From the NCBI GenBank assembly GCA_951640195.1, contig OX621166.1, positions 124,001-188,000 of the forward strand: a stretch of DNA of 64,000 nucleotides, given 5' to 3'. Source of the stretch: Porpolomopsis calyptriformis. Taxonomy: Eukaryota; Basidiomycota; Agaricomycetes; Agaricales; Hygrophoraceae. Under the pieces are notes generated by a model that ran no database searches, was not told where the DNA came from, and saw only the letters and a list, made by a program, of their open reading frames with translations. Numbering within the stretch: the stretch's first letter is position 1; every line of letters begins with the position of its first letter. This document shows positions 863-19,570 of this stretch, in pieces. Made by a program: the position numbers and the translations under genes.

Positions 863-2745
863 GGTACCCCAATCAGTCTGCCCATGGGGATGTGGTTATT
901 CTGGGATGTTATCACACTAATGCTATTGATTGAACATAACATGCTGGTGGTTAGAGAGCTCGGTGAGAAGTTGAAGGTATAACCTCTGATACCTCTTGCA
1001 TGCTAATTATGGTACCCCAATTATTCCGCACATGAGGATTGGACTACTCCTGATGTTTGTAGCACCAATGCTATTGATTGAACATAAAATCCTGATGCTT
1101 AGAGGGCTCTCTGATAAGTTGAAGGTATACCCTCCCATACCTGTTGTATACTTATTGCGGCACCCTAGTTAATCCACACATGATGATTGAACTATTCCTA
1201 ACCTTTGTAATACTTATGCTATTGATTGAACATAAAATCCTGATACTCGGAGAGCTCTGTGATAAGTTGAAGGTATATCATCCGATACTTCTTACATACT
1301 ATACCCCAATCATTCCACACATGAGGATTAGACTACTCCTGACCTTTGTAACACTAATGCTGTTGATTTAACATAAAATCCCGATGATTAGAGAGCTCTC
1401 TGATAAGTTAAAGGTATACCACCCCATGATATCTTATATACTTATTGCGGCACCCTAGTCAATCCATACACGAGGATTAGACTATTCCCAATGTTTATAA
1501 CACTGATGCTATTGATTGAACATGAAATCCTGATGCTCAGAGAGCTCTGTGATAACTTGAAGGTATACCCCCCCCTACCTCCTGTATACTTCTTGCGGCA
1601 CCCCAGTCTATCTACACATGATGATTGGACTATTCCCAATGTTTGTAACACAGGTGCTATTGATTGAACATGAAATCCTGATGCTCAGAGAGCTCTGTGA
1701 TAAGTTAGAGATATACCCCCCTATACCCCTTATATAGCTTATTGCAGTGCCTCATTCTGTCCATATATTGTCATTCCGAGCATCTGTAACACTGGTGCTA
1801 TTGATTGAACATGAAATTGTGATGTTTAAAGAGGTCTGTGATAAGTTGGAGATATACTCCCTCATACCCTTTATATACCTTATTGGAGTGCCTTATTCTA
1901 CCCATATATTGTTATTCCGAGCATCTATGACACTAGTGCTATTGATTGAACATGAAATTATGATGTTTAAAGATGTCTGTAATAAGTTGGAGATATACCC
2001 CCCCATACCCCTTATATAACTGATTGCGGTACCCCAAATGGTCTATAACTTAGGATTTTTGTATTCCCCACCTCTATGACACTGGGGCTATTGATTGAAT
2101 ATAAAACCCAGGTTTTTAAAGACCTCTGTAATAAGTTGGAGATATACCCCCCCATACCCCTTATATAGCTTATTGCGGTACCTTATTCTGCCTATACATC
2201 AGGATTTTGTTATTCCGAGCCTCTATGACACTACTGCTATCGATTGAACATGAAATCCTGATTTTTAAAGAGCTCTGTGATAAGTTGGAGATATACTCCC
2301 CCATACCCCTTATATAGCTTATTGCGGTACCCCAAATGGTCTATAAATCAGGATTTTTGTATTCCCAGTATCTGTGACACTAGTGCTATCGATTGAACAT
2401 AAAATCCTGATTTTTAAAGAGCTCTGTGATAAGTTGGAGATATACCCCCCCATACCCCTTATATCACTGATTGCGGTACCCCAAATGGTCCATAAATCGG
2501 GATTTTTGTATTCCCCACCTCTATGACACTGGGGCTATCGATTGAATATGAAACCCCGATTTTTAGAGCAGTCTATAGCTACTTATACTTATGCCTCCTC
2601 CTAAAACCTTACTATCTTCCACCACGACATACCAAATGCTCTAAAAATCGGAATTTTCTGTGGGCCCACCATTAGTTCACTGTGCCTATCGAATGGACAT
2701 GAAATTGTGATTTATAGAGTGCAATACAATAGCTGGGCTGCATAA
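863..2745. repeat. Tandem satellite, about 13 units of ~148 bp
   Basis: A unit beginning near ggtacccc and containing tgctattgattgaacat recurs head to tail. That anchor lies near 921, 1069, 1217, 1358, 1507, 1655, 1796, 1937, 2086, 2235, 2384, 2533 and 2683, giving spacings of 148-150 bp with four shorter units of 141 bp. Each unit also holds gagctctgtgataagttg and a run such as ataccccc. Units drift gradually from left to right, with the last ones the most diverged. Small open frames run through the array but only follow the repeat. The period is close to a nucleosome repeat length, as often seen in satellites; I cannot tell whether it is centromeric, subtelomeric or local. Confidence 0.93.
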
Positions 2746-3139
2746 TGGTATAAATGGAGTATTTTACATATATCTCAAGAATGGGACCGCCGATTTTTTT
2801 AATTTATGGCTTAAACTGATTGTATTGGGATGCCCTAACGATCCCCCAAAGAATTTTGAATTAATTTTGTGCCAGCATTTTGGTCATTTTGTTGATAATG
2901 GGTCCCTGATGTGCAAAAAAGTGTAAGGATTGGGGATAAGTTATCACACTTTGCTCAATACCAGGATATGCACAGAACCAATGTATTGGGGCAATCTGGT
3001 ATAAGCGGGAGTGGGATGTAAACTTATTGTTTACCTAAGTATAACCGGTACTTAAGGTATCTGGTACAAATACGTACAAACACGGCATGGTGGCTGTATG
3101 TAACATATCTGTTACAGTAGTGGTGAAGAGATTGATGTA
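2746..3139. other. AT-rich spacer without recognised features
   Basis: This stretch of about 390 bp between the satellite and the ribozyme-bearing region is AT-rich. I see no coding frame, repeat or RNA fold in it. Confidence 0.5.
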
Positions 3140-3520
3140 AATGACAACTAGCCTGTTCATATGTAAATATTCACTCTTGGGTTCGAACCCAAGACATAGC
3201 ACTATCTACTTTCGGCCTTATCTCCGGAGACGGCCGACTGCTAGTAAGTGTGTGGGTTCGATAACTAAAGGCTATCGTGGACAAGTCCTTTCGCTCATGA
3301 AAGGCAGGCAGTCGGCCATCATGGTCCAATGTGAATGTAGAGGAAGTAGGGCGCACTTCACCATTCAGTCTGCACCCCCCTTGACTACCCACCTGTTCGG
3401 GGTCAAAGACCTCTACCTTCCGTTCATGGTCGGTTTGAGTGGACCGTTCATGGTTGTTGGGTCATTCATGACCTGATGCTGGACTCCCCCTCAGCAATCT
3501 AAGTTGGGTACACAGTATAG
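3140..3520. other. Unassigned region with a B-box-like palindrome and an inverted repeat
   Basis: At 3178-3195 the sequence cttgggttcgaacccaag is a perfect 18 bp palindrome whose core resembles a tRNA T-arm or pol III B box. A 10 bp inverted pair, ggccgactgc (3232-3241) and gcagtcggcc (about 3309-3318), encloses about 67 bp. Open frames run in both directions but have no recognisable domain. The location directly upstream of a hammerhead motif suggests both may belong to one small non-autonomous element, such as a SINE- or retrozyme-like unit. I could not define its ends. Confidence 0.3.
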
Positions 3521-3527
3521 CCATAAG

Positions 3528-3588
3528 GGCTGGTATGGGCAAGCGGTTAAGCCCACTGATGAGCCCCTTCGCACGGGTGAAACCAGCT
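3528..3588 (+). ncRNA. Type III hammerhead ribozyme motif
   Basis: All parts of a hammerhead fold are present in order. Stem III 5' strand is ggctgg (3528-3533), followed by the cleavage triplet GTA with predicted cut after A3535. Stem I is tgggc (3536-3540), loop 3541-3550, gccca (3551-3555). The core ctgatga is at 3556-3562. Stem II is gccc (3563-3566), loop 3567-3574, gggt (3575-3578). The core gaaa is at 3579-3582, then ccagct (3583-3588), which closes stem III. Helices I and II are capped and helix III is open, so it is type III. The first stem II pair is a G-U wobble where G-C is usual; a C-to-T change in a CpG would explain that. Loop-loop contacts and activity are unknown. Confidence 0.82.
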
Positions 3589-3680
3589 AGTCCCGCCACT
3601 ATGCCAATTAACCAATAAAACAAAGTCTTACCTAGCATGCAAGTCATGAGGGTGCCAATGGCATCATCTCATTGAAGGTA

Positions 3681-7100: not shown

Positions 7101-10100
7101 AGCCGAGCCATTCCACCGTTGAGGTCTGCCCAAATCGGCTCCACTTGAGTAATGCTGAATAGCAGCGGATGCATAAGACCCAGAATATTGAACGCCATTT
7201 CTTTCGCCGAGAAGGTGCGAACGCCATAACTTTCCAACTCATGTGCGACAATATTGGCGGGGCTCATCAAGCCCGTACCACGGGTCCATCTAATGGGAGC
7301 AAATTTAGATAGATGATGACAAAAGCGTCGACATTCACTCACCCAATGACAGCACCCGCCAGGCAGAGGTACTCACCCCAACTTTCCGAGCTCCAGCGAT
7401 TAAACAGCGTCTCGAGAGAAATTTTTGACTCGGAGTAGAGACCATCATTCCCAAAAAGACCATGGTTGGGCGAAAGCGGTAATATGACTTGGGTAGGCCG
7501 TGTGACGAAATCTCGACTGGCTTTCTTGTTTTTGACAGCGCCGAGAATTCGAAGGAGGTTGACCAACATGATACGATGGGCAAGTTCAGACTTGTCGTCG
7601 ACACCATCAATCTCTCGTCCATTTTCAGGAACAGCGGCGAATGGGAGAATATAGTCGAGATCGAGCCCTAACGTAGCATAGATGTAGTCAACTAGAGCTT
7701 CGACGTCTTGCTTAGAACCCTGATTGAATGGGACGACAATCAAAGCGGAACCGCGACTTCCAAAGCTCTGGAAGATCGATTGGTAATACTCGACAGTGGC
7801 GCGACTGTAACGGGATGTGGTGACCACAACATGTGCACCGCCAGAGAGCAGCCCTTTCAAAATCTCGACACCGATAGAACCCTTGCCGACGCCAGTTAAC
7901 AGAGCATTCTTGTCCTTGAATGTCGTACCTGAGGTAGCAATTTCGTGGAGGATATCCAAGTAGACACTCGTCAGGTTGTTGCTATATTCCCAATTAGTGC
8001 CGACTCTGCGTTTCAAGTGCAACAAGGGAATCTTGTCGGCCGATACGAATGAAACGCTTGTAATTTGAGGGCGAAGGAATTGAGATGATGATCTCCGGCT
8101 TCGGGTTCCAACGCGGCTACGAGGATCAGGTCCTTTACGTAGAGAACGAACCACCCCTTCATAAAGCGCCTTGATGCGATTCTTCTGCTCTTGGCTAATT
8201 CCAGGTTGCGATTTTACAACCGTCCAGAGTTTAAGAACATCGTCCTGAACCTTTTGGATATTTACGGCTCCCGAGACAGTGTCACCACTCGCCATTTCTT
8301 CTACGTACGCTTCAAGCTTGCGGACATTCTCGCGAACGACTTCCGAGTACACAATATCGCCCTTTTCCGTGACTTCGGTACGAGGCGCGGTGGGAAAGGT
8401 AACTTCAGGGACCAGTTAGAAGAGAAAAGTAGACAATATCTAAGCGCGACTAACCATCCTTGTAAACCGGTGGCCTTCCGATGACCTCTTTAGTGTTATC
8501 GAGGAGTTGTTGCCCGAATTCTTTGGCCAACTTGTAGTTTTCGCCTCGAGTAACGTCACATTGGTCAATGTTGTATTGCATATAGACAAGGAAGTCCGGA
8601 TCGGCACGATTGAGGAGAGAAATGGCACGCGCAGTAATATCGCGATCTACGGTGGCGAGTCGTCCGAAAATAACGTTGTAATACATAAGCAGAGCATCTT
8701 GTCGAGCCCAGTTCCAGGAAGAATCAAAGCGCCGTGCCTTGAGTGGATCAAAGATTGGCTGGATACCATCGATATAGGTGTCGCCGTGCTCCTTCGCGAT
8801 GCTGTCTAACCGGGCTTGAAGAGCGATCGAATGTGCCTTTTCTTTATCAAATGCAATTTCACCCGAGCGTGAGTCGCGTTTGAGGTAGCGCATATAGAGT
8901 TCGACGTGCTGGGCTGCAAACCGTTCCTGCTCTGCCTGGAATTTCAAAAACTCCTCACTATTTATCACGGCTCCTCCAGCTGCCCCAGCTGCTCCACCTC
9001 CCGAACTGCCTGGAGACAGAGAAATCCCGGACCTCTTAGCATATATCGCCACGATGCCGTCCAGCCAGGTCTTGGCTTCAGCTTCTGAACCAAGCCGCTT
9101 CGCAGGTTCTAGGGTGGTTCCAAGCAACAAAATGCCGTCTGACCGCGAAGGTCCCAGACCCCAACTCTTGGCAAGGCAAGACTTGATGGCAGAAGAATTA
9201 AACCCGCCAGGCATCTTACCACCAATCATACGAGAGACCAACGCGTTGGAATGTTTTCCAAGGGTGCCGGAAAATCCCATCCCCAATGCGGACGCCAGTT
9301 CTTCGAGCGGCATTTCTTCGGCTTTCTCAGGGGCAGACGCAAATTCCAACTGTAGGTCGCCTAGTATCTCGTTTTGTAGTGTGGACTTCCCGCCTACAAG
9401 GTCTTTGATGCTCTTTGAAAGGGTACTTCATCTACTTTTTTTTTGAGCTTTTGGGCAATGACAACGGTCAAGATCTCAATGGATTTCAGAGGAACATCCT
9501 CCACCATGGTGACGGAAGCAGATGGAGCGGAAATCGACGCAATTGTAACCGGAGCGGTACTGGGAGCCGGGGGTGCAGTTTGAGGAGCTTCTTCGACTAC
9601 TACAACGGCTTCAGGCTCATCTTCGAATTGGTAGTATATTTCCTTCCCGTTCTGTGCATGACAAAGAATCGACCGAGAGCGGCCGGTGGAATCATCTCGG
9701 GCCTCGTATTTGGCCTTGAGTGTACGTTTAGCCATGCCGGTCAACGTTGGAGAAGGGCCAAGCTCGATGAACCTTTCGAACGCGAAATCTGCGAACAACA
9801 GGTCCTGTGTCTCGATCCATCGAACAGGGGAAGCAAATTGGTATGCGAGGAGTTCCACAAGAATGATATACGCCAACTTTTGACGTTGCGCTGGGTCAGC
9901 CCAGCCGTCCTCGTCCCACCTCCCCAAAACTTTGTCAAGGCGTGGAGACGATGTTTGGTCGTAGGTTAGCTGGGCATACTCGCGAGAGACTTCGAATGGC
10001 TTAGCGATAAGGTTAGGGATATACTTTCCGACGAGCACGTCGGGATTCAGGTGATCGGCCTTGAGCTTTTTTGAAAGATCTGCAATATGGATATTAGTTA

Positions 10101-13100
10101 TCAGAATTCAGGTAGCGGTTGAGTTATCCTACAAGCTCGGAATGGCATGACCCCAGCCCAAAGATAGCGGGAATGGAAAGGTACATCAATACCAGGGAGG
10201 GGGATTGTTGCAAAACCACGTTCGAGCTTTATATGGCCTTCGACTTTTTGCTGTTCTTTAGCTCGTTCGAAACAACTCTTGACGATCTCTCCCAGCATCT
10301 CTTTGACCCTCTCAACAGTGTATGTTTCAGTGAGCTGCATAAACTTTGTTAGCCACATTTAGTTTAACACTTGAATTAATTTCACCTTGGCAATGTCAAT
10401 TTTTTGGACTTTCAAATAATTGAGGACATTCGTCATCGTTTCAAGTGCCACGAGCTCCCCAGCACAAACGTATTGTTGACCCTGCAAGATTACCGAAAGA
10501 TCAACACCAGTTAAAGGTACACCAAACGCAACACACCTCGACATTGTAATTGACGATTTCAAGGAGACAGCTAGTTGATAGAGCGATGCTGTCAACTACC
10601 TCACGCAGGGCTGCATCGCCGAATGTCTTCGAGATTCGACTCGGGTTGACGGCACACATGGCGTAATTAGACCGGTTTTCGGAGTCTCGCTCCACAGCAC
10701 GCTGCATTGTGATTCCACGGTAGAAGACAACGTCAACAAGAGACAAAATGGGAAGGACGTCTGTGATCGAGGCCAGTGCGGAATACTCGCCCAAAGAGTG
10801 TCCGGCAAAAGCACAGTCCTTCTGCACGAGACCCTTCATCCGAAGGTCCTCGAATGCGGCCTTCTCGGTAACGACGAGAGCGATCTGTGCAAATTGGGTA
10901 GCAAAGAGCAGTCCATTCGGATGACTAAATGTATATTTGGGAGTGCGAACGTCGATATCGGCGAAGAGGGGGAGAGTCTTGACGTTACCGTCCTTGTCCA
11001 TTGTGTCGTATGTCATATCGATGTATCGTTGGCGAATGGCTTGACCTTTGATTCCACCAAAGTGAATAGTTTTCTCCTTCGGGTTGTCTTTGACTATCTC
11101 CACGATAGAGAATCCATACACATTGCGGAGATGAGCATCGGCACTCTCCCACACTGCGCGGGCGGCAGGGGAACTATTGTAAAGATCCATACCCATACCT
11201 GGTTCTTGAGATCCTTGGCCGGTGAATACAGACGGTGGTGGGCTGTGCAACCTCCGCTGAGCCTTCAAGAACCTTCTCGCCACGACTATTTCCTGTCTCG
11301 ATTTGGACGACGATGTGACCATCCCGCATAGCAACATGTTTGATACTGACGGTCAATTCGTCACCGGGCAGGACCATCCCCACAAACGTAACATTATAGC
11401 TTTGAGAAACAAAATCCGTCAATAATTCCGTCTCAGTGATAAGTACCACGCACGCAAGGACCCGTTCGGAGTGACCTTCCGCAACAACATTCTCGACGTG
11501 GCAACGTGTTGCAGCACTAGTCCACAAACCATGTGTGATGGTGCCGGGGAGAGACGCATAGTCAGAGAAGTACGGGTTCACGTGGATGGGGTTGAAATCA
11601 CCCGAGACGTCAGAGTATGGTTCGTTAGTAAGGGGGGCACTGAATACGGCTTTGGCGGGGCTGGTCAGTGAGTAACCGCCGTTCGCCAAGGGCACCGCAA
11701 GCCCTTGAGGGCTGCCGTGACGTTGCAAGTACGCGAGGACGGGGTTACCTTTACAATCGTCCTGTTGGAAGTCCACAGATCCGACCTTGACCAAGCGTCT
11801 CAGAAGGTCTCTAACGAAGACGCTGCCAGAGACCGAGACATCGCAGTATGAGGTCTTGTCCTTGAATGAAACTTGCCACTCGATACGGAAAATAAGCCAT
11901 GTGCCAGCCAGGAGTGGTCTAGATTCATCATCCCATTTGAACCATTCCTTCGACTGCAGCACCCCAACGGCAGCGTCGTTTGCAAGCTCAACTAGATAGT
12001 CGGGTTCCTCCGTTGTCTCAAATGTATTCTGGTAGTCGGAGAAGCGACCACGATAAAGAAATGCCGATACTACCTCGATAACTGGTTTGTCGCCACGACG
12101 AACATAACCTTTCACCTTGACTATCTTGCCCTCGTTCGCATTTGTGACCGAGACGATTCGAGCTTCCGCCTTGCAGACATCCCCAACTTGAAGTGGTTTC
12201 GCACCATCGACCATGCGGAAGCCGTTGGAAAGGTGGACAAGTTTAAGGAGATCTCCATCAATTGCAAATGGGAATATCGACTTTATGATTGCCTGTGGAC
12301 CACCGTCAAAGTACCATAAATATTTATGAATATGAGACTTGCCTGCCATCCAGTCACGATTGCGAAGTCCATAGGCGCCTGAACCTTCGTGTTCCTAACG
12401 GTGTTGAAGGCCTCGCCTTGATTGCCAACAACACCACAAAATCTTGCTACGTCAGTGACATCAATTGTGACTTCGGGGCCAACGAATACATCGTGGATGT
12501 CAAGGTTAGGGAGGACAGCTTCATCGCCAAACCAAAGCTTCCAGTAAAATTCCTTGATCCGAGTGTTGCGGCCCTCCGCGATTTCATGAATTGGAACTGA
12601 GCCCATGGAAGGCTTATACACAAATCGTAAGTGGAGAGGAACTGAGACTCCCTGACGTTCTTCGAAAACCGTAATATTGATCAGCTTTGATTGGGCGTCA
12701 TATTGAATTTCTACTGCTTTGAAGGCCGGCGTTTGAACGTTATTCGACCGGGCGGCACCATAGACGGTGACGGAAACAGGGGATGAATCCAACAAGGTAA
12801 CGACAACTCTTTGTCCAGAACGAGGAGCAAGGAGTCGATGAATGGGGTTACTGACATACGATGAACCTTGCACAATGGTCGGTGAGCAGAAAAGAGCCCG
12901 CAACCATCCGATTTGGGGGCCAGCTAACGTCTCTAACCACAGGGACTGCTCAGGTGCCGCAGTACCCATCACTTGGAAGTTTCGGCCTCTGTCTCCACTC
13001 GCTGGATGTTGAACGGCACCAGGAAGTCCGGAGAAGCAGCCTTGGGTTTTACAGCCAGGTAGTCGACAGAGGGGATTTTGGATTCGTCGCCGCCATAACG

Positions 13101-15983
13101 GTGCTCTACAAGCTTCTGGATGAGAGATGAATTGACGCTATCAAGTAGATCCTTGATGGCTGGATCCTTGACTTTAGAATGTTTCACAGCCACCGGTCCT
13201 TGCAAGATGCAAACTCGTTGAGGGTCTTGATCAAAAACGCCTTCGATATCCTCAGCTGCCCACAAAGAGTCCTGTCGGAAGGTCACACCTAATTAGAACA
13301 ATCTGTCGATAATTCTGGTTGGGTCACATACCTTCTTAAACCATACTTCGAAATTGGCATCCAGCACGGGAATGAAGGGTACGGGTTTTTGTCCAAGTCT
13401 CTGAGAGATGGCCAAGAAATATGCCTTATCTTCTGAGGCCAAAGGTTGCTCCCTGGCTAACGGATATGCTCTGAAGAACAAATCGACGAACGGTAGGGGG
13501 TCGTCGAGCGTTGCAAAGCTCTGCAAAAGTGATGGTTTGTCGCCACCGCCATTCACGCCTGCAAAACGTTCCTCTACTCTCCTCAACCAGTCACCCGTCA
13601 AATTCCTCAAGGACGTATCCACCCATCGGTTCTCGTGCTTCACGAACATGAGTCTCACCATCCTCAATACCACCTCTTCATATGTCATAGCACCAAGATC
13701 GGTTGCAACGCTATCGTCCTTCTTCCATCCAAACCATGGCTTGCTGAAGTCTTTGTTTAATTTCTCTATAACTTCCGCTCTACGCTCTGTTAGCCATGCC
13801 ATGCGTTTTTCCTTTGGTAGGCTGAATACGGTGTCGTCGAACTCTTTCCACAACTTGACGCCCCGTGTCGCAATCTTATGAATCGGCTCTCCGAGCTCGG
13901 ACCGCACAGTGAAATCCCCCCCGTCGGCTTCACGTATGTACCTTCCCAGCCCCTGTCCTCCACACCAGGGGCCGCAACGATCAAGTCTTTCACTGACGAG
14001 CTTGTGTGCGCTTCTTTCGCAACCATGACACGGCTTGCGAATAGAAAGCCGTCGAAGGGCATGGGCTGGACGTCGTACGAGACAGACTAGTCCCCGGTTA
14101 GGTATGGCCACACATCATCAGCGGCACCAAAACCAGATCCGGCTACAAGGGAGATATTTTTTTGCTGGCAAATGAAGCGATACGTTGCAAGAATAGGTTG
14201 ATGAAAGTCCTCGAATGAATGGTGCCCATCGGCCCGCCCGCCAGTCCATTGTAAAATGATGGGGAAGTCGGGATTTGAAGCAGCAATGTTGACAACCTGT
14301 CGAATGCCATCGGTACTACCAGGCTTGAATGCGACGTGCTTAATCCCAGCGTTCCTCAGCCCCTCAATAATCTCGGCAGCTTTCTCCGTAGTCGGAATGC
14401 CGGCGGCAACGCAAAACCCTTCTATAGGCAGCCCTTCTTGCCGTAACTGTTGCCATAGAGGGAGCTGGAAACCGAACTGACGAGGGTTGATGTAAAGGGA
14501 GTTGAGTGTGATGCCAATCCCGGCGGGGATCTTCGTCTGTATTTCGGAAACTTTGGCACGCAATGCAGCAGCGCTGTAGTGCCCTCCGCCAGCAAGTTCA
14601 ACATGGTATCCAGCCTCAAGAACAGCACTGACGAAACCAGCTTTTACAGTGGTGGGGGTCATACCGGCAACCATGATCGGCGGTTTGCCCAAGAGACGAG
14701 AAAACGGGGTATCGAGATGTATCACACCATCGCTATTGATGGATTAGAGAATAACGGAAGATATCGGTATCATTAAACGAACCTTGTCCGCACCAAGCCC
14801 GGCGCCCATTGCTCACTCCATCGATCCTCGAACTTGACGCATTGCGTATCGTAGAGTTCAACATCACCCTTGCCTTTATCCCCAACAACAATAACCCGAA
14901 CTCCTCGTCCATCTAGATTGCGCGCAGTGAGAGGTCCGATCCCGCTCAAGCCGCCAGGACCAAAATCAATCGCATGGGTCGCTGCCTTCGGGAAGTTGGT
15001 CGCAACTGACCAGTGAATGGGTAACGTAAATATTTGATCGCAGAGTAAACGCGTGATCGACCCTGAAAACAGTCGCAAATCTGAACCTGTGCAACCGGCT
15101 CGTCATTATGTCGAAGGTGAAAGAGACGACAAAACGCACCATCCTCGGTGTGAAAAACTGGTATCTGCAGGTCCTCGGGCTTCCAGAGATCCTCTCCCCC
15201 GAGATCCTCTACACAGAGCTTTTCTCCCGCGCCGGCAAGATATGTGCTGTGATACGGGACGCCAACAACTAAGAAACGAATGGAAAATACAGACTTGCGT
15301 TGTGAAAATGGCGTTTTGCTCTGATCGATCCCGTTGGGTGCACGAACATTCCTCAAATTCGTTACAAGTCCACACAACGAGCGCGTTGGTCCAGTGATAA
15401 CAAATGCGCGTGGCCCATTATGCAAAGATACTGTCAACTTGGCGTTTTCGGGGAGGTGGGAGTTCGTCTTCTTCACGTGTGGCTCCAAGTCCTTTAACGA
15501 GAGGCCAGTCACAGAAAGCATAGGGCTCGGCACGCCCTCTCCACCCTCAACTGTGTCCTGGACAATACTCGGCTCTAGAGACGTTACGGGAAATGCTTGT
15601 TGTCCACGCAAACCAGAGAAAAACAGCCACCGAATCGCTTTACGAGCATTGTCCATGAAGGACTCGAAAGAGCTAGATGCGGCGATGGCTACGGCTGATA
15701 CTAGGCGTCGCGAATGACCAGTCGCGCCAGCAATACGATCACGGAGTTCACCTGGAGTGAGACCAGAGACACGGCAGACAACCAGGTACTGGGCAAGTTG
15801 TGTGAGGCCAATGAGAGGTGAAGAAATAGGGATAGATGCGAGATAGATGGTAGAAGGGCGAGGAATGGTTTTAGAGAGCCAAGCGACGACCTCCATGCCA
15901 TGAGGGTAGAAGAGTGTATCTTGACGAGCAACTGCGAGGGGTTGGAGAACCTCGTTGACCATGGATGTAAGGAAAGAGGTCAC
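4180..15983 (-). pseudogene. FAS1/FAS2: Fused fungal type I fatty acid synthase, truncated at both ends and frameshifted
   Basis: One minus-strand gene carries the yeast beta- and alpha-subunit domains in order: acetyltransferase (15983-14790), enoyl reductase (14725-13300), dehydratase (13286-11230, with SGDFNPIHVNP), malonyl/palmitoyl transferase (11230-9660, GHSLGEYSA), ACP (about 9420-9050, pantetheine Ser in GGKS), ketoreductase (8250-6950, GLYSESK) and ketosynthase (6570-4500; catalytic Cys of GACAT split by an intron, HGTST). The two subunits are fused, as in agarics. Introns of about 50 nt fit the frame (15139-15087; a GC-AG intron 12342-12293). Lesions: the N-terminus is missing; TAG for Trp in GDWSV (14087-14089); frameshifts near 13915, 12975 and 9417; a 2-nt loss near 11228; acetyltransferase GHSQG reads GHSRR; and the C-terminal phosphopantetheinyl transferase is cut near 4180. 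Not functional as read. Confidence 0.93.
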
Positions 15984-16007
15984 AAACGTGCTATATATAG
16001 CACGACT

Positions 16008-16925
16008 AACCCGACTTTGCGTTTTTACTGAGCGTGACAGCCGCCGCTTTGCCTTTATCGAGAACTTCCATTAATCCGACACTGGCCCATTCACGTCTCG
16101 TACTTCACGAGTCAAGACTAACCGAACCTCGTTCACCAACTCGCCGCTGGTGGGAATACTGCCTCTCATAGCCAAGTACTGTTCTCCATGGAGTAATTTC
16201 GCCTGAAGCAGAGTCGGTGTCGGAAGCAAGGTATTAGCAGTTGACTAACTGGGTTGAAGTTGGGGAGCCAGCCCAACGGGATGCCAGCGCTGGCAAGGAA
16301 CTGAGGGATAACTCCAAAAGTGGGAAGGGCACTGGATTCATCGTGTCCCTCATACGTCCATTGGAGTTCCTTTGCTGCCGCACCAATTCCTATGTCATAC
16401 AGGATTACATCTCGCTCGGTGTAGTTGGATCGATGTGGACCCCTTTAGCGTCCCTGACAAGTTGCGAATCTTCTTGATTCCGTATTTGACGCCTTCTCGC
16501 GCCACGGTTTTGGTGAATCCGATGAGACCTCATAAATGTTTGCGAGTGAGTCCGTCACAAAAAACGATGACGATAACACCGGGGTTATAATAAATTACGC
16601 CCAGACGAGTTTCATTGAGAAAAACTCACCCCTTGTCTTGTAAACTACTGGCATTGTTGATCAGGATGGTCACCGCGCCGAACGCATCAAGTGCAGACTG
16701 TATAACAGCACCCCCGTCTGTCACCGAGGACGTATTTGCGACCGCCTTGCTGCCGGCTGTAGAATGGAATTAACTTGTCGGATATTACAGGACATGGATT
16801 GACAAACACTTGATGACCTCGTCAACAACTTTCTGGGCAGCGGCAGCACTGACGTCGCTAACGACGACATTCGCGCCGCGAGAAGCGAAGAGCTCTGAAT
16901 AACTGGTTGAAGTGAGTGGTGGTGA
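16008..16925 (-). pseudogene. FOX2: Peroxisomal multifunctional beta-oxidation enzyme (FOX2/MFE-2) fragments
   Basis: FOX2 carries two short-chain dehydrogenase (SDR) domains and a MaoC-type hydratase and catalyses hydration and dehydrogenation in peroxisomal beta-oxidation. Here minus-strand pieces of it appear in order: SDR segments ASRGANVVVSD and DAFGAVTILINNA (about 16890-16640), an SDR end GLIGFTKTVAREGVKYGIK (about 16530), then MaoC-domain segments YTERDVILYDIGIGA, LQWTYEGHDESSALPTFG, LLHGEQYLAMRG and EVLDKGKAAAV (16430-16030). The catalytic SDR middle and most of the hydratase are absent. Stops and frame changes separate the pieces. The fragment ends directly against the 5'-truncated fatty acid synthase. 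The start of the gene is missing. Confidence 0.8.
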
Positions 16926-17024
16926 GTGCGCGGGCAAAACGACTTATACAGTATATGGATCGGTTCATGTTGAAGGAAAGCCTCGCGTACTCTGCCTGTT
17001 TTGCTCGTGTTCGTCACCATTATA

Positions 17025-18044
17025 ATGGCTCCCAAATCATTTCTATCCACTGTCCGTTCTGTATTCTCAAAGTTTTTCGTAGCGAACAATCCAATGTCCA
17101 CCGACCACTTGCTCTTGCCTGGGGAGGATCAGTCACTCCCCGTCTCGGTGCTCAGCCAATTTGTAAAGAGCAAGGAAAACCTCGACTTGGCTAACTCAGC
17201 TTTCGTCCGCCAGGCGACTCACTTCAAGCAGTCTTCTACCGTCTTCCACGAATCAGTCCTCCTCGACATTGACATCGTCGACATTGATGGATCACCCATC
17301 GCTAAGACTTTTTTTCACGCTGAACGAGCAGGAGGAGACGGCCCAGTCGGAAACTGCTCACCCTCCAGCTCATCCACCTCGCTTGCTTCCTTGTCCGAAA
17401 ATACCATAAAAGCAAAGGATACACTCTTACTTCCTGGCTCAAAAGCCCGGGATAAATATTCATTCGATGACTACCTAGCTAAAGATCACATACGACTCAG
17501 GACCATCCGACTGTCCAAGGCGATGTCGGTTGCGCAACTGATGGTTATGCTGATGGTCCTGCATGACCACTGGCCCCATTACGTTCTCTTCACCTCCCAG
17601 TGTTATTTGTTTGCAGGGGCAGTTTGTGAGATGTTGCGGATCGAGTTTGGTGGCTACGTTGTTGATGATGGGAATAACGTGAAGGCAGGAAGGTTCAAGT
17701 CTGTGCAGGTCACAGAATCACCTCCCGATGTTACGGAGGTCCTTGAAAAGTACCGCGCGGAGTGGGAAAGGTTTTGTAAGAAGACCCTCGAGGCAGAGGG
17801 ACGGGTGGAGCAGCAGCACCAGGAAGAGTTGGCAAGACGTGAGCGGCAGCTCCAGGAAGAGGTAGCGAGACGTGAGCGGCAGCTCCAGGAAGAGGTAGCA
17901 AGACGTGAGCAGCAGCTCCAGGAAGAGGTAGCGAGACGCGAGGAGGCGGAGCGGCAGCATGAGGAAGCGGTAGCAAGACGCGAGGAGCAGCACAAGGAAG
18001 AGTTGGCATATCTGAAGGGGCTGCTCCAACAACAAAGTCAGTAA
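17025..18044 (+). CDS. Unknown agaric-type protein with C-terminal coiled-coil repeats
   Basis: An uninterrupted frame gives 339 residues from the ATG at 17025, chosen because upstream codons in frame offer no ATG. I do not recognise a named domain. Residues about 140-230 contain a conserved-looking stretch (DHIRLRTIRLSK, HYVLFTSQCYLFAGAVCEML) that resembles lineage-specific mushroom proteins I have seen only as hypothetical. The last ~75 residues form a highly charged coiled coil from 11-residue repeats (RERQLQEEVAR). It is the only intact gene in the 3.7-22 kb fragment series and runs opposite to its neighbours. Its promoter side abuts the FOX2 fragment, its 3' end the histidine kinase fragment. 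A downstream exon is possible, as the 3' sequence contains intron-like borders. Confidence 0.6.
   Translation: MAPKSFLSTVRSVFSKFFVANNPMSTDHLLLPGEDQSLPVSVLSQFVKSKENLDLANSAFVRQATHFKQSSTVFHESVLLDIDIVDIDGSPIAKTFFHAERAGGDGPVGNCSPSSSSTSLASLSENTIKAKDTLLLPGSKARDKYSFDDYLAKDHIRLRTIRLSKAMSVAQLMVMLMVLHDHWPHYVLFTSQCYLFAGAVCEMLRIEFGGYVVDDGNNVKAGRFKSVQVTESPPDVTEVLEKYRAEWERFCKKTLEAEGRVEQQHQEELARRERQLQEEVARRERQLQEEVARREQQLQEEVARREEAERQHEEAVARREEQHKEELAYLKGLLQQQSQ
17806..18010 (+). repeat. 33-bp coding minisatellite
   Basis: Units built on cggcagctccaggaagag recur about every 33 bp and encode 11-residue coiled-coil repeats. Three central units are almost identical and the flanking ones are shortened or diverged. 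The array stays in frame. Long antisense frames rich in Leu/Pro run through it but are by-products. Confidence 0.85.
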
Positions 18045-18094: not shown

Positions 18095-19570
18095 TCTCAA
18101 GCAGGGTAATATCCACAGTTCCTTTGAGCGTTGCCATCTCCCCCTCGACAAGTATCTCAATCTTCTGTGTAAGGTCGCCCTTGGCTACAGCGGTGGTGAC
18201 ATGGGCAATCGAGCGAACTTGATCGGTTAAACTTGAGCACATTCGATTGACCTTTTATAAGAATGAGATAAGGCAACCGTACATCCACATAAAAACTCAA
18301 AAATAGACACTTACATTCCTGACAAGCTCGAACCAAACACCTTCCACGTCTGGAACATGCGCTTGCCCCCCGAGCTTCCCTTGACTGCCTACTTCCAGTG
18401 TCACCCTCGTCACTTCCGCCGCCAACGCACGGAGTCCCACACCATACCGTTCACGGTGTTCTTCAAATCTAAGATCTCGCCGCGTCCACTTCGATCTGCT
18501 TGGACAAGCCTCCTAGTGCGACTGCCTTGGTGACTTTTGCAATCGACCGGACTTGACTAGTGAGATTAGCGGCAAGGTTGTTGACTACGCCTGTGAGTTC
18601 TCGCCAGGTTCCTTCGACGTCGAGGACAAGAGCTTGTCCGCCGAGTTTACTAAATAGTAATTCTGCATGTTGCAGCCAACGAGGGGTGGTAAAAGATCAC
18701 TTACCCTTCTGTGCCGACCTATTGACTGACTCGAGTAACCTCCTTAGCGAACTGTCCCAATTTATCGACCTATGTACAATATAACGGTAGCGTACAATGG
18801 AATTATGATAGAGTAATTCGCACCATAGTATTGATAACGTCTTTGAGTTGGACCATGACAACGCCCTGTACTGGCACGGTTATCTTCTGAGATAAGTCAC
18901 CCCTAGCGACGGCGTTACAAACACGAGCGACATCTTGGACTTGTGCATTGAGCAACCGCAGCTCCTCGACGGCACTCATCCCGCTCTCGAACGCAACGGA
19001 AGACAAACCGACAGAAGGGTCGGTGTACACATGTCTCATGGTGGTGGCGTCGGTGGTGACCCTCCCGCAGGTCGGGCAGGTGGAGTGATGTCCATGGGAA
19101 AAGGCCGGCGCGGAGGCCGTTGTGGTGTAAAGGTATCGGGTGTGCTTGGTTGGGGCAAAGCCTGTGAGGTTTTCGAGGGAGGAATGTTCCGGGCGGCCAT
19201 TTGGGGGTGGACAGGGGATGGTGGATGGATGGTCGTCATCTCGTGGTTCCATTTCGACGTCCTGTTCGGTGGTGCCATTATTGTTGCTTGGATGGGACTC
19301 ACCGTTGGCGATGATGTGATGATAGATAGAATGCGGTGAAAGCTCGTTGGTGAAGGAGGGTATATCACCCACACTTCGTCTCTTTTTTGTATCTGGTCCG
19401 TTCAATTGCCAGCTCTCGGACGCTTTAATGGAAGCAAGCGTGTCTTCTGCAGTGTACATCCGTCTCGCCATTGCACTGAGCGACCTGAGGATGATATCCA
19501 TCTGTTTATCTGTGGGGCCATCGTATCTGGGGATTGGAGCCGCCGAAGGACCAAGCTCATAGATGGACAA
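18095..19570 (-). pseudogene. Group III (Nik1-type) hybrid histidine kinase, N-terminal HAMP fragment
   Basis: The minus strand begins with MSIYELGPSAAP at 19570 and reaches tandem HAMP modules: VQDVARVCNAVARGDLSQKI, then [19 protein letters not shown] and [20 protein letters not shown]. Such HAMP arrays are typical of fungal osmosensing kinases upstream of the Hog1 pathway. The histidine kinase and receiver domains are absent: similarity stops after about three HAMP units near 18095, close to the coiled-coil gene. Introns lie between modules. Damage includes a TAG in the expected VSxEVGTEG segment near 18735 and one-base frameshifts near 18480 and 18430. It could not signal as read. The start codon assignment is tentative. 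Confidence 0.82.

What the first reader, a model, noticed from the sequence alone, without database searches (positions are those of the whole stretch)
3528..3588. Hammerhead ribozyme outside any recognised element
The sequence shows the full three-helix hammerhead core in order: GTA cleavage triplet, capped 5-bp stem I, CTGATGA, capped stem II, GAAA, and a closing stem III of six pairs plus the A-U core pair. Type III hammerheads are established in viroid-like RNAs and plant retrozymes; an orphan copy in a mushroom genome is unusual. The single weak point is the G-U pair next to the core, which a C-to-T change in CpG would produce. Inference: a relic or active part of a small non-autonomous retroelement or circular RNA.
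Basis: partly seen in the sequence, partly recalled or inferred. Interest (0 to 1): 0.88.

Follow-up and report, generated by a model that had tools for sequence, protein, structure and literature searches.

The report
Self-cutting RNA motif, fungal repeat
A fungal genome carries what looks like a genuine self-cutting hammerhead RNA motif at the end of a short non-coding unit that exists in three diverged versions; similar motifs have been reported in fungi before, so it is a new example rather than a new kind of thing.

Summary
The motif is real. Window 3528-3588 (+) has every hammerhead core nucleotide and three helices in type III order. It is the only strict-descriptor match in the window; 400 Mb of random sequence gave none. 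Rfam Hammerhead_3 scores it 19.9-28.3 bits, below the curated 48.5; genome-wide E is 0.0087.

"Orphan, outside any element" is wrong. It ends a ~420-nt non-coding unit (about 3176-3597). Fourteen core matches were found in this genome, in three lineages. Twelve, the window's included, ride in a duplicated block of at least 14.8 kb in 11 of 12 copies that also carries a frame-disrupted fatty acid synthase region. One is a 67%-identical relative at C4:622k; one is a decayed relative at C11:1032k. Between window and C4 all 12 core sites are unchanged while the middle of the unit is 58% identical, and a stem I pair changes U-A to A-U.

Retrozyme features are not met or not shown: one hammerhead per unit, no paired repeats, no clear TSD. 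Best reading: low-copy remains of a short structured element whose RNA would cut itself after A3535. Hammerheads are reported in Pleurotus and Yarrowia. Transcription and cleavage are untested.

The parts
3528..3588 (+). Type III hammerhead motif: stem III 3528-3534/3582-3588, stem I 3536-3540/3551-3555, core 3556-3562 and 3579-3582, stem II 3563-3566/3575-3578
   Evidence: sequence; RF00008 below cut-off; descriptor; pairs across three lineages
3535..3536 (+). Expected cleavage site, between A3535 and U3536 (inferred from the hammerhead scheme)
   Evidence: sequence; cleavage not tested
3543..3572 (+). Possible loop I-loop II contact: GCGG 3543-3546 with UCGC 3569-3572 (my reading; also possible in C4, not in C11)
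   Evidence: sequence; not computed by any tool
3499..3510 (+). Block CTAAGTTGGGTA just before the hammerhead, kept in the three lineages (one difference in C11)
   Evidence: alignments
3176..3597 (+). The ~420-nt non-coding unit; BLAST homology with C4:622k covers 3180-3597
3183..3261 (+). 5' hairpin of the unit, 23 of 23 pairs kept in window and C4, two of them with changes on both sides
   Evidence: two sequences; structure predicted from the same two
3180..3190 (+). GGTTCGAACCC, resembles a pol III box B (recalled consensus) but is also part of a palindrome and of the 5' hairpin
   Evidence: sequence; searches find no tRNA in window, L048, L034
3111..17927 (.). Duplicated block that carries the unit: 12 copies start at or before 3111; 11 of 12 reach at least 17927, the twelfth runs into the start of contig C7
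8450..16070 (-). Fungal type I fatty acid synthase domains in pieces; the ACP domain frame is interrupted in the block copies
1046..2720 (.). Tandem array of 141-149 bp units upstream of the unit; no hammerhead in it

Best explanation
The window holds one copy of a short (~420 nt), non-coding, structured unit with a conserved 5' hairpin and a type III hammerhead close to its 3' end. RNA read from the + strand would be expected to fold the hammerhead and cut itself between A3535 and U3536, leaving a 2',3'-cyclic phosphate and a 5'-hydroxyl, which trims or releases the unit's RNA near its 3' end. The unit most likely spread long ago as a short non-autonomous retroelement, or is a small non-coding RNA family; three diverged versions remain. 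The window's version was then copied passively to 12 places by duplication of a larger block. Shown: the motif, the copies, the homology of three versions, core conservation. Inferred: transcription, cleavage, way of spreading.
For: Motif and chance test. 14 exact core matches, 0 at 1-2 mismatches, 8 at 3 mismatches against 5 for the reversed control pattern. RF00008 on its own reports 12 plus the C11 copy at 28.3 and 26.1 bits. Window and C4: 301 of 448 columns identical; the hammerhead region 53 of 59, the middle 131 of 227; 12 of 12 core sites unchanged, P about 0.0014 at the middle's identity. Stem I closing pair U-A, A-U and G.U; one stem III pair C-G and U-A. The 12 block copies keep 12,388-12,389 bases between window positions 3111 and 15500 in the 10 other copies where both ends are seen (my subtraction).
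Against: Below the Rfam cut-off. The minimum-energy fold of 3496-3606 is another long hairpin (-32.7 kcal/mol against -21.6 for the hammerhead with open flanks); for the motif alone -20.8 against -20.5; C4 -22.1 against -19.2; C11 -16.5 against -12.9; the two-sequence consensus fold also prefers the rival hairpin. With three rows, shuffles reach the covariation score 93 of 500 times. The pair next to the core is G.U in the window and A.C in C4. No RNA data. Only three lineages, so mobility is not shown; no TSD at the ends.
Confidence: 0.6

Rival explanations
1. It is a solo LTR or single-repeat remnant of a retrozyme-like element that once had two hammerheads and moved through a circular RNA.
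For: Length of the unit is near the ~350-bp LTRs of plant retrozymes, which carry a hammerhead (PMC7761336, passages). Fungi, Agaricomycetes among them, have short LTR elements with tRNA-like LTRs, Helenus (PMC10886601, passages).
Against: One hammerhead per unit in all 14 matches and none paired within 1 kb. No TSD of 6 or more at the ends; one 6-base match in C11 lies 48 and 27 bases away from them; 4-5 bp TSDs cannot be judged because the exact ends are unknown. PBS and PPT were not searched for.
Confidence: 0.17
2. It is a small non-coding RNA gene family, not a mobile element; the hammerhead makes the 3' end of a functional RNA.
For: Low copy number, three lineages. Core and 5' hairpin kept while the middle diverged. 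All three versions seem to share the same two ends.
Against: C11 is about 230 nt shorter and has lost G12 of the core; no transcript data; no shared gene neighbourhood was seen, though flanks were only looked at by eye.
Confidence: 0.14
3. It is a tRNA-derived, pol III transcribed SINE with a hammerhead, like SMalpha of schistosomes.
For: GGTTCGA box at the 5' end of all three versions. SMalpha is a SINE-like family with a hammerhead (PMC8490949, passages).
Against: No tRNA found by ARAGORN in the window, L048 or L034 and no tRNA family at E up to 10 in the three units. The box is part of a palindrome and of a hairpin with compensatory changes. No clear box A.
Confidence: 0.05
4. It is a chance look-alike, not a ribozyme.
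For: Below Rfam's curated cut-off. Loose hits ring in 7 of 14 control genomes at E up to 10. A rival fold is more stable.
Against: 0 descriptor hits in 400 Mb random. Two homologous loci keep the core pattern exactly. The 22-base core pattern occurs once in the prokaryote contig collection, with no hammerhead around it.
Confidence: 0.04

Closest known systems
Hammerhead_3 matches in the mushroom Pleurotus ostreatus (PMC5040776, passages read)
   Same: Type III hammerheads in a basidiomycete nuclear genome: five listed, three of them on one scaffold within about 10 kb
   Different: The paper lists them from an Rfam search; its passages describe no surrounding element.
Hammerheads in interspersed repeats of Yarrowia lipolytica (PMC3088659, passages read)
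   Same: Hammerheads in a multi-copy repeat of a fungus
   Different: A yeast, not compared in sequence here
Plant retrozymes (PMC7761336, passages read)
   Same: Small non-coding unit with a hammerhead
   Different: Retrozymes have two ~350-bp LTRs with hammerheads, PBS, PPT and 4-bp TSDs; here one hammerhead per unit and no LTR pair was found
Metazoan non-LTR retrozymes (PMC7761336) and SMalpha of Schistosoma (PMC8490949), passages read
   Same: Short non-coding SINE-like units with a hammerhead
   Different: Those are described as type I; here type III, low copy, no tandem repeats of the unit found
Terminons, telomere-linked Penelope-like elements of rotifers (PMC6431247, passages read)
   Same: Hammerhead near a 3' end; 9 of 12 block copies lie within 132 kb of a contig end
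   Different: After the hammerhead here comes CTAGTCCC(G/A)CC in window and C4, not a run of telomere-complement repeats; C4:622k, C11:1032k and C9:601k lie far inside; no reverse transcriptase in the 10 ORFs scanned
Helenus TRIMs (PMC10886601, passages read)
   Same: Short fungal non-autonomous units with a box-B-like GGTTC
   Different: Helenus has LTRs with a tRNA-like part, PBS, PPT and 5-bp TSDs; the paper's passages mention no hammerhead in it, and no tRNA was detected here

Membership tests
Hammerhead ribozyme, type III | Core CUGAUGA, GAAA with A15.1 pairing U16.1, and cleavage after NUH | tested here: met
   3534-3535, 3556-3562, 3579-3582 (descriptor)
Hammerhead ribozyme, type III | Three helices, stems I and II closed by loops, open end in stem III | tested here: met
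   95.6% of 45 cells paired over three lineages
Hammerhead ribozyme, type III | Score above Rfam's curated cut-off | tested here: not met
   19.9-28.3 of 48.5 bits
Hammerhead ribozyme, type III | Self-cleavage | not testable with these tools
   needs in vitro RNA; a rival fold is predicted
Retrozyme | Two repeats each with a hammerhead flanking a central region | tested here: not met
   14 single core matches; one model match in the window
Retrozyme | PBS for a tRNA and polypurine tract | not tested
   no internal region could be defined without an LTR pair
Retrozyme | Target site duplications | tested here: inconclusive
   no repeat of 6 or more at the assumed ends of three units; 4-5 bp not judged
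Viroid-like circular RNA | Ribozyme on the second polarity | tested here: not met
   no minus-strand ribozyme of any Rfam family at E up to 10 in 3060-3620; some such RNAs have only one, so not exclusive (recalled)
Viroid-like circular RNA | Unit-length circular RNA | not testable with these tools
   no RNA data
tRNA-derived SINE | tRNA-related 5' region with boxes A and B | tested here: not met
   box-B-like motif only; no tRNA by ARAGORN or Rfam

The most novel reading that the evidence does not exclude
An undescribed fungal family of short, non-LTR, non-coding retroelements that carry a single type III hammerhead at the 3' end and a conserved 5' hairpin; the ribozyme is still active, helped by a loop-loop contact, and defines the 3' end of the element's RNA instead of making circles.
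Probability: 0.3. Interest if true: 0.6.

Novelty: new member of a known kind. Interest (0 to 1): 0.38.

Why it matters
Type III hammerheads are best known from viroid-like RNAs and plant retrozymes (recalled). A fungal unit that has kept one such ribozyme at its 3' end through long divergence, with no sign of paired repeats, would point to another use of the ribozyme in mobile or non-coding RNA. It also shows that a curated Rfam threshold can miss a conserved fungal hammerhead, and that copy number alone misleads: 12 of the 14 matches are one insertion copied by block duplication.

Tried and rejected
tRNA D-arm origin of stem-loop I: GGGCAAGCGGTTAAGCCC resembles a Ser/Leu tRNA D-arm (from memory). 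The pattern hit 7 viral contigs; ARAGORN finds no tRNA in any of the 7 loci and the 40 bases after each hit show no CTGATGA core. Dropped.

Relatives elsewhere: three family patterns (two core, one 5' domain) gave 0 hits in viral contigs. The one hit in the prokaryote contigs (Sulfitobacter) gave no hammerhead match in Rfam at E up to 10. No other fungal genome could be searched. Exact patterns find only near relatives.

Upstream tandem array (1046-2720): the unit's model finds nothing in it, so it is not a ribozyme satellite.

Literature: ten searches. No listed title is about this unit; only part of each result list was opened, and the library lacks most subscription journals, so I make no claim that it is unpublished.

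Mistakes: the script took an alignment row for the window, so its first printout and its 'win' entry are void; only its locus-to-locus comparisons are used. One search failed (structure of wrong length), redone.

Full report
What was checked. A whole-window Rfam scan at curated thresholds finds nothing. Permissive scans find RF00008 Hammerhead_3 at 3532-3584: 25.6 bits, E 0.0033, or 19.9 bits, E 0.15, in another cut of the region. Genome-wide the score is 28.3 bits, E 0.0087. The cut-off is 48.5. A strict descriptor (5-bp stem I, CTGATGA, 4-bp stem II, GAAA, 6-bp stem III with the U-A core pair) hits once on both strands of the window and never in 400 Mb of random sequence with the window's dinucleotide make-up. 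It was written after seeing the motif. I take the motif as real.

Copies. The stretch 3500-3620 has 12 matches at 100% in the 33.5 Mb genome, the window's own included, and one at 84% over 98 query bases. Over 610 bases 11 of the 12 have the full score and one a slightly lower one; a further fragment covers only 3111-3264. The core pattern with up to 3 mismatches gives 22 places: 14 at 0 mismatches (the 12, C4:622114, C11:1032343), none at 1 or 2, and 8 at 3, against 5 for the reversed control pattern. RF00008 alone reports 13 (the 12 and C11), scoring 68 of 6333 candidates; it missed C4, which scores 14.6 bits, E 5, when looked at alone. Queries with the C4 and C11 units add no new place, nor do two other family patterns (13 and 14 places, all known). 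So three lineages were found, not 14 independent insertions. More diverged members could be missed: the unit's own model could not be run on the genome.

Why 12 copies. The window copy lies in a larger duplicated block. All 12 share the sequence from 3111 on. In 9 of 12 (window included) the upstream tandem array is joined to it; L015 and L018 have another upstream sequence joined at 3111; L012 has the array, then 3111-3264, then 1277 bases of that other sequence, then 3111 on. Eleven of 12 reach at least window 17927; the twelfth, on C7, runs into the start of its contig. Between positions 3111 and 15500 the 10 other copies in which both are seen keep 12,388 or 12,389 bases (my subtraction). 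From 3111 to about 8.6 kb identity is 99.9-100% in the three copies whose alignment starts there; alignments that include the array give 97-99%. Nine of 12 lie within 132 kb of a contig end, the others at about 163, 238 and 601 kb. The block carries fungal fatty acid synthase domains on the minus strand at 8450-16070. Genome-wide the FAS ACP domain lies in an uninterrupted 552-aa frame in 2 places (C8, C12) and in 12 block copies with a stop inside; 11 of these also show a piece in another frame, which looks like a frameshift, though the search ignores introns. The hammerhead strand is opposite to the FAS strand. The hammerhead is multiplied here as a passenger.

The unit. Window 3180-3597 aligns with C4 (L048:1501-1934) at 301 of 448 columns, 67%. 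C11 (L034) resembles both ends, by short BLAST matches and MAFFT, and is about 230 nt shorter. All three begin with GGTTCGA in a hairpin-like palindrome and end about nine bases past stem III. Identity of window to C4 by region: 5' domain 71/90, middle 131/227 (39 gap columns), stretch before the hammerhead 20/28, hammerhead 53/59, tail 9/19; 12 of 12 core sites unchanged, P about 0.0014 at the middle's identity. I chose the regions after seeing the alignment.

Structure support. On three rows the hammerhead pairs 95.6% of 45 cells; slides by 1-3 columns give 17.8-53.5%. The stem I closing pair is U-A, A-U and G.U, and one stem III pair C-G and U-A. Letter shuffles reach the covariation score 93 of 500 times, so covariation is not decisive by itself. 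The 5' hairpin pairs 46 of 46 cells in two rows, with two double changes; slides give 21.7-45.7%, shuffles 145 of 500; it was predicted from the same two rows, which favours it. Loops I and II can form a GCGG/UCGC contact in window and C4, lost in C11 (my reading). Against: the minimum-energy fold of 3496-3606 is another long hairpin, -32.7 kcal/mol against -21.6 for the hammerhead with open flanks; for the motif alone -20.8 against -20.5; C4 -22.1 against -19.2; C11 -16.5 against -12.9. The two-row consensus fold also takes the rival hairpin there.

State of the copies. Window: full core, G.U beside the core, GUA triplet. C4: full core, A.C there, GUU triplet. C11: GAAA reads AAAA (G12 lost) and a stem I pair is broken, so it is probably dead. 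The weight of G12 and of the pair next to the core is recalled knowledge.

What it is not shown to be. Retrozyme: only single hammerheads, no TSD of six or more at the ends, PBS and PPT not searched. tRNA-SINE: no tRNA by ARAGORN or Rfam. Viroid-like: no ribozyme on the minus strand. Three exact family patterns have no match in the viral contigs.

Literature. Five Hammerhead_3 matches in Pleurotus ostreatus (PMC5040776, passages). First fungal hammerheads, Yarrowia interspersed repeats (PMC3088659, passages). Retrozyme anatomy (PMC7761336, passages). Helenus (PMC10886601, passages). SMalpha (PMC8490949, passages). Terminons (PMC6431247, passages). A mushroom transcriptome study removed hammerhead RNAs found with Rfam (PMC8893723, one passage). 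Fungal ambiviruses carry ribozymes (PMC10237039, listing and start of abstract).

Verdict. A genuine but below-threshold type III hammerhead at the 3' end of a low-copy ~420-nt fungal unit, copied in this genome by block duplication. New member of a known kind.

Noticed in passing
window 8450-16070 (-), and the other 11 block copies: A fungal type I fatty acid synthase region is present in 12 block copies with a stop inside the ACP domain, beside 2 places (C8:1409404, C12:52966) where the domain is in an open 552-aa frame.
   Followed up: partly
window 1046-2720: Tandem array of 141-149 bp units, 10-12 copies, next to the unit in most block copies.
   Followed up: partly
L012:3214-4490, L015 and L018 upstream of window position 3111: A second upstream sequence joined at 3111; in L012 it lies between two copies of 3111-3264. 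L015 and L018 also hold a 413-bp inverted pair at 85%.
   Followed up: partly
window 18115-19500: A different repeat with at least 25 places elsewhere matching from query position 2616 or 3014 on, 96-99% identical (40 of 52 candidates scored).
   Followed up: no
L048:1198-1456: Two similar ~145-bp units lie just upstream of the C4 copy (by eye); no match to the window's array.
   Followed up: no
window 16974-18044 (+): A 356-aa open frame with repeated QLQEEVARREE-like runs and no Pfam match.
   Followed up: no
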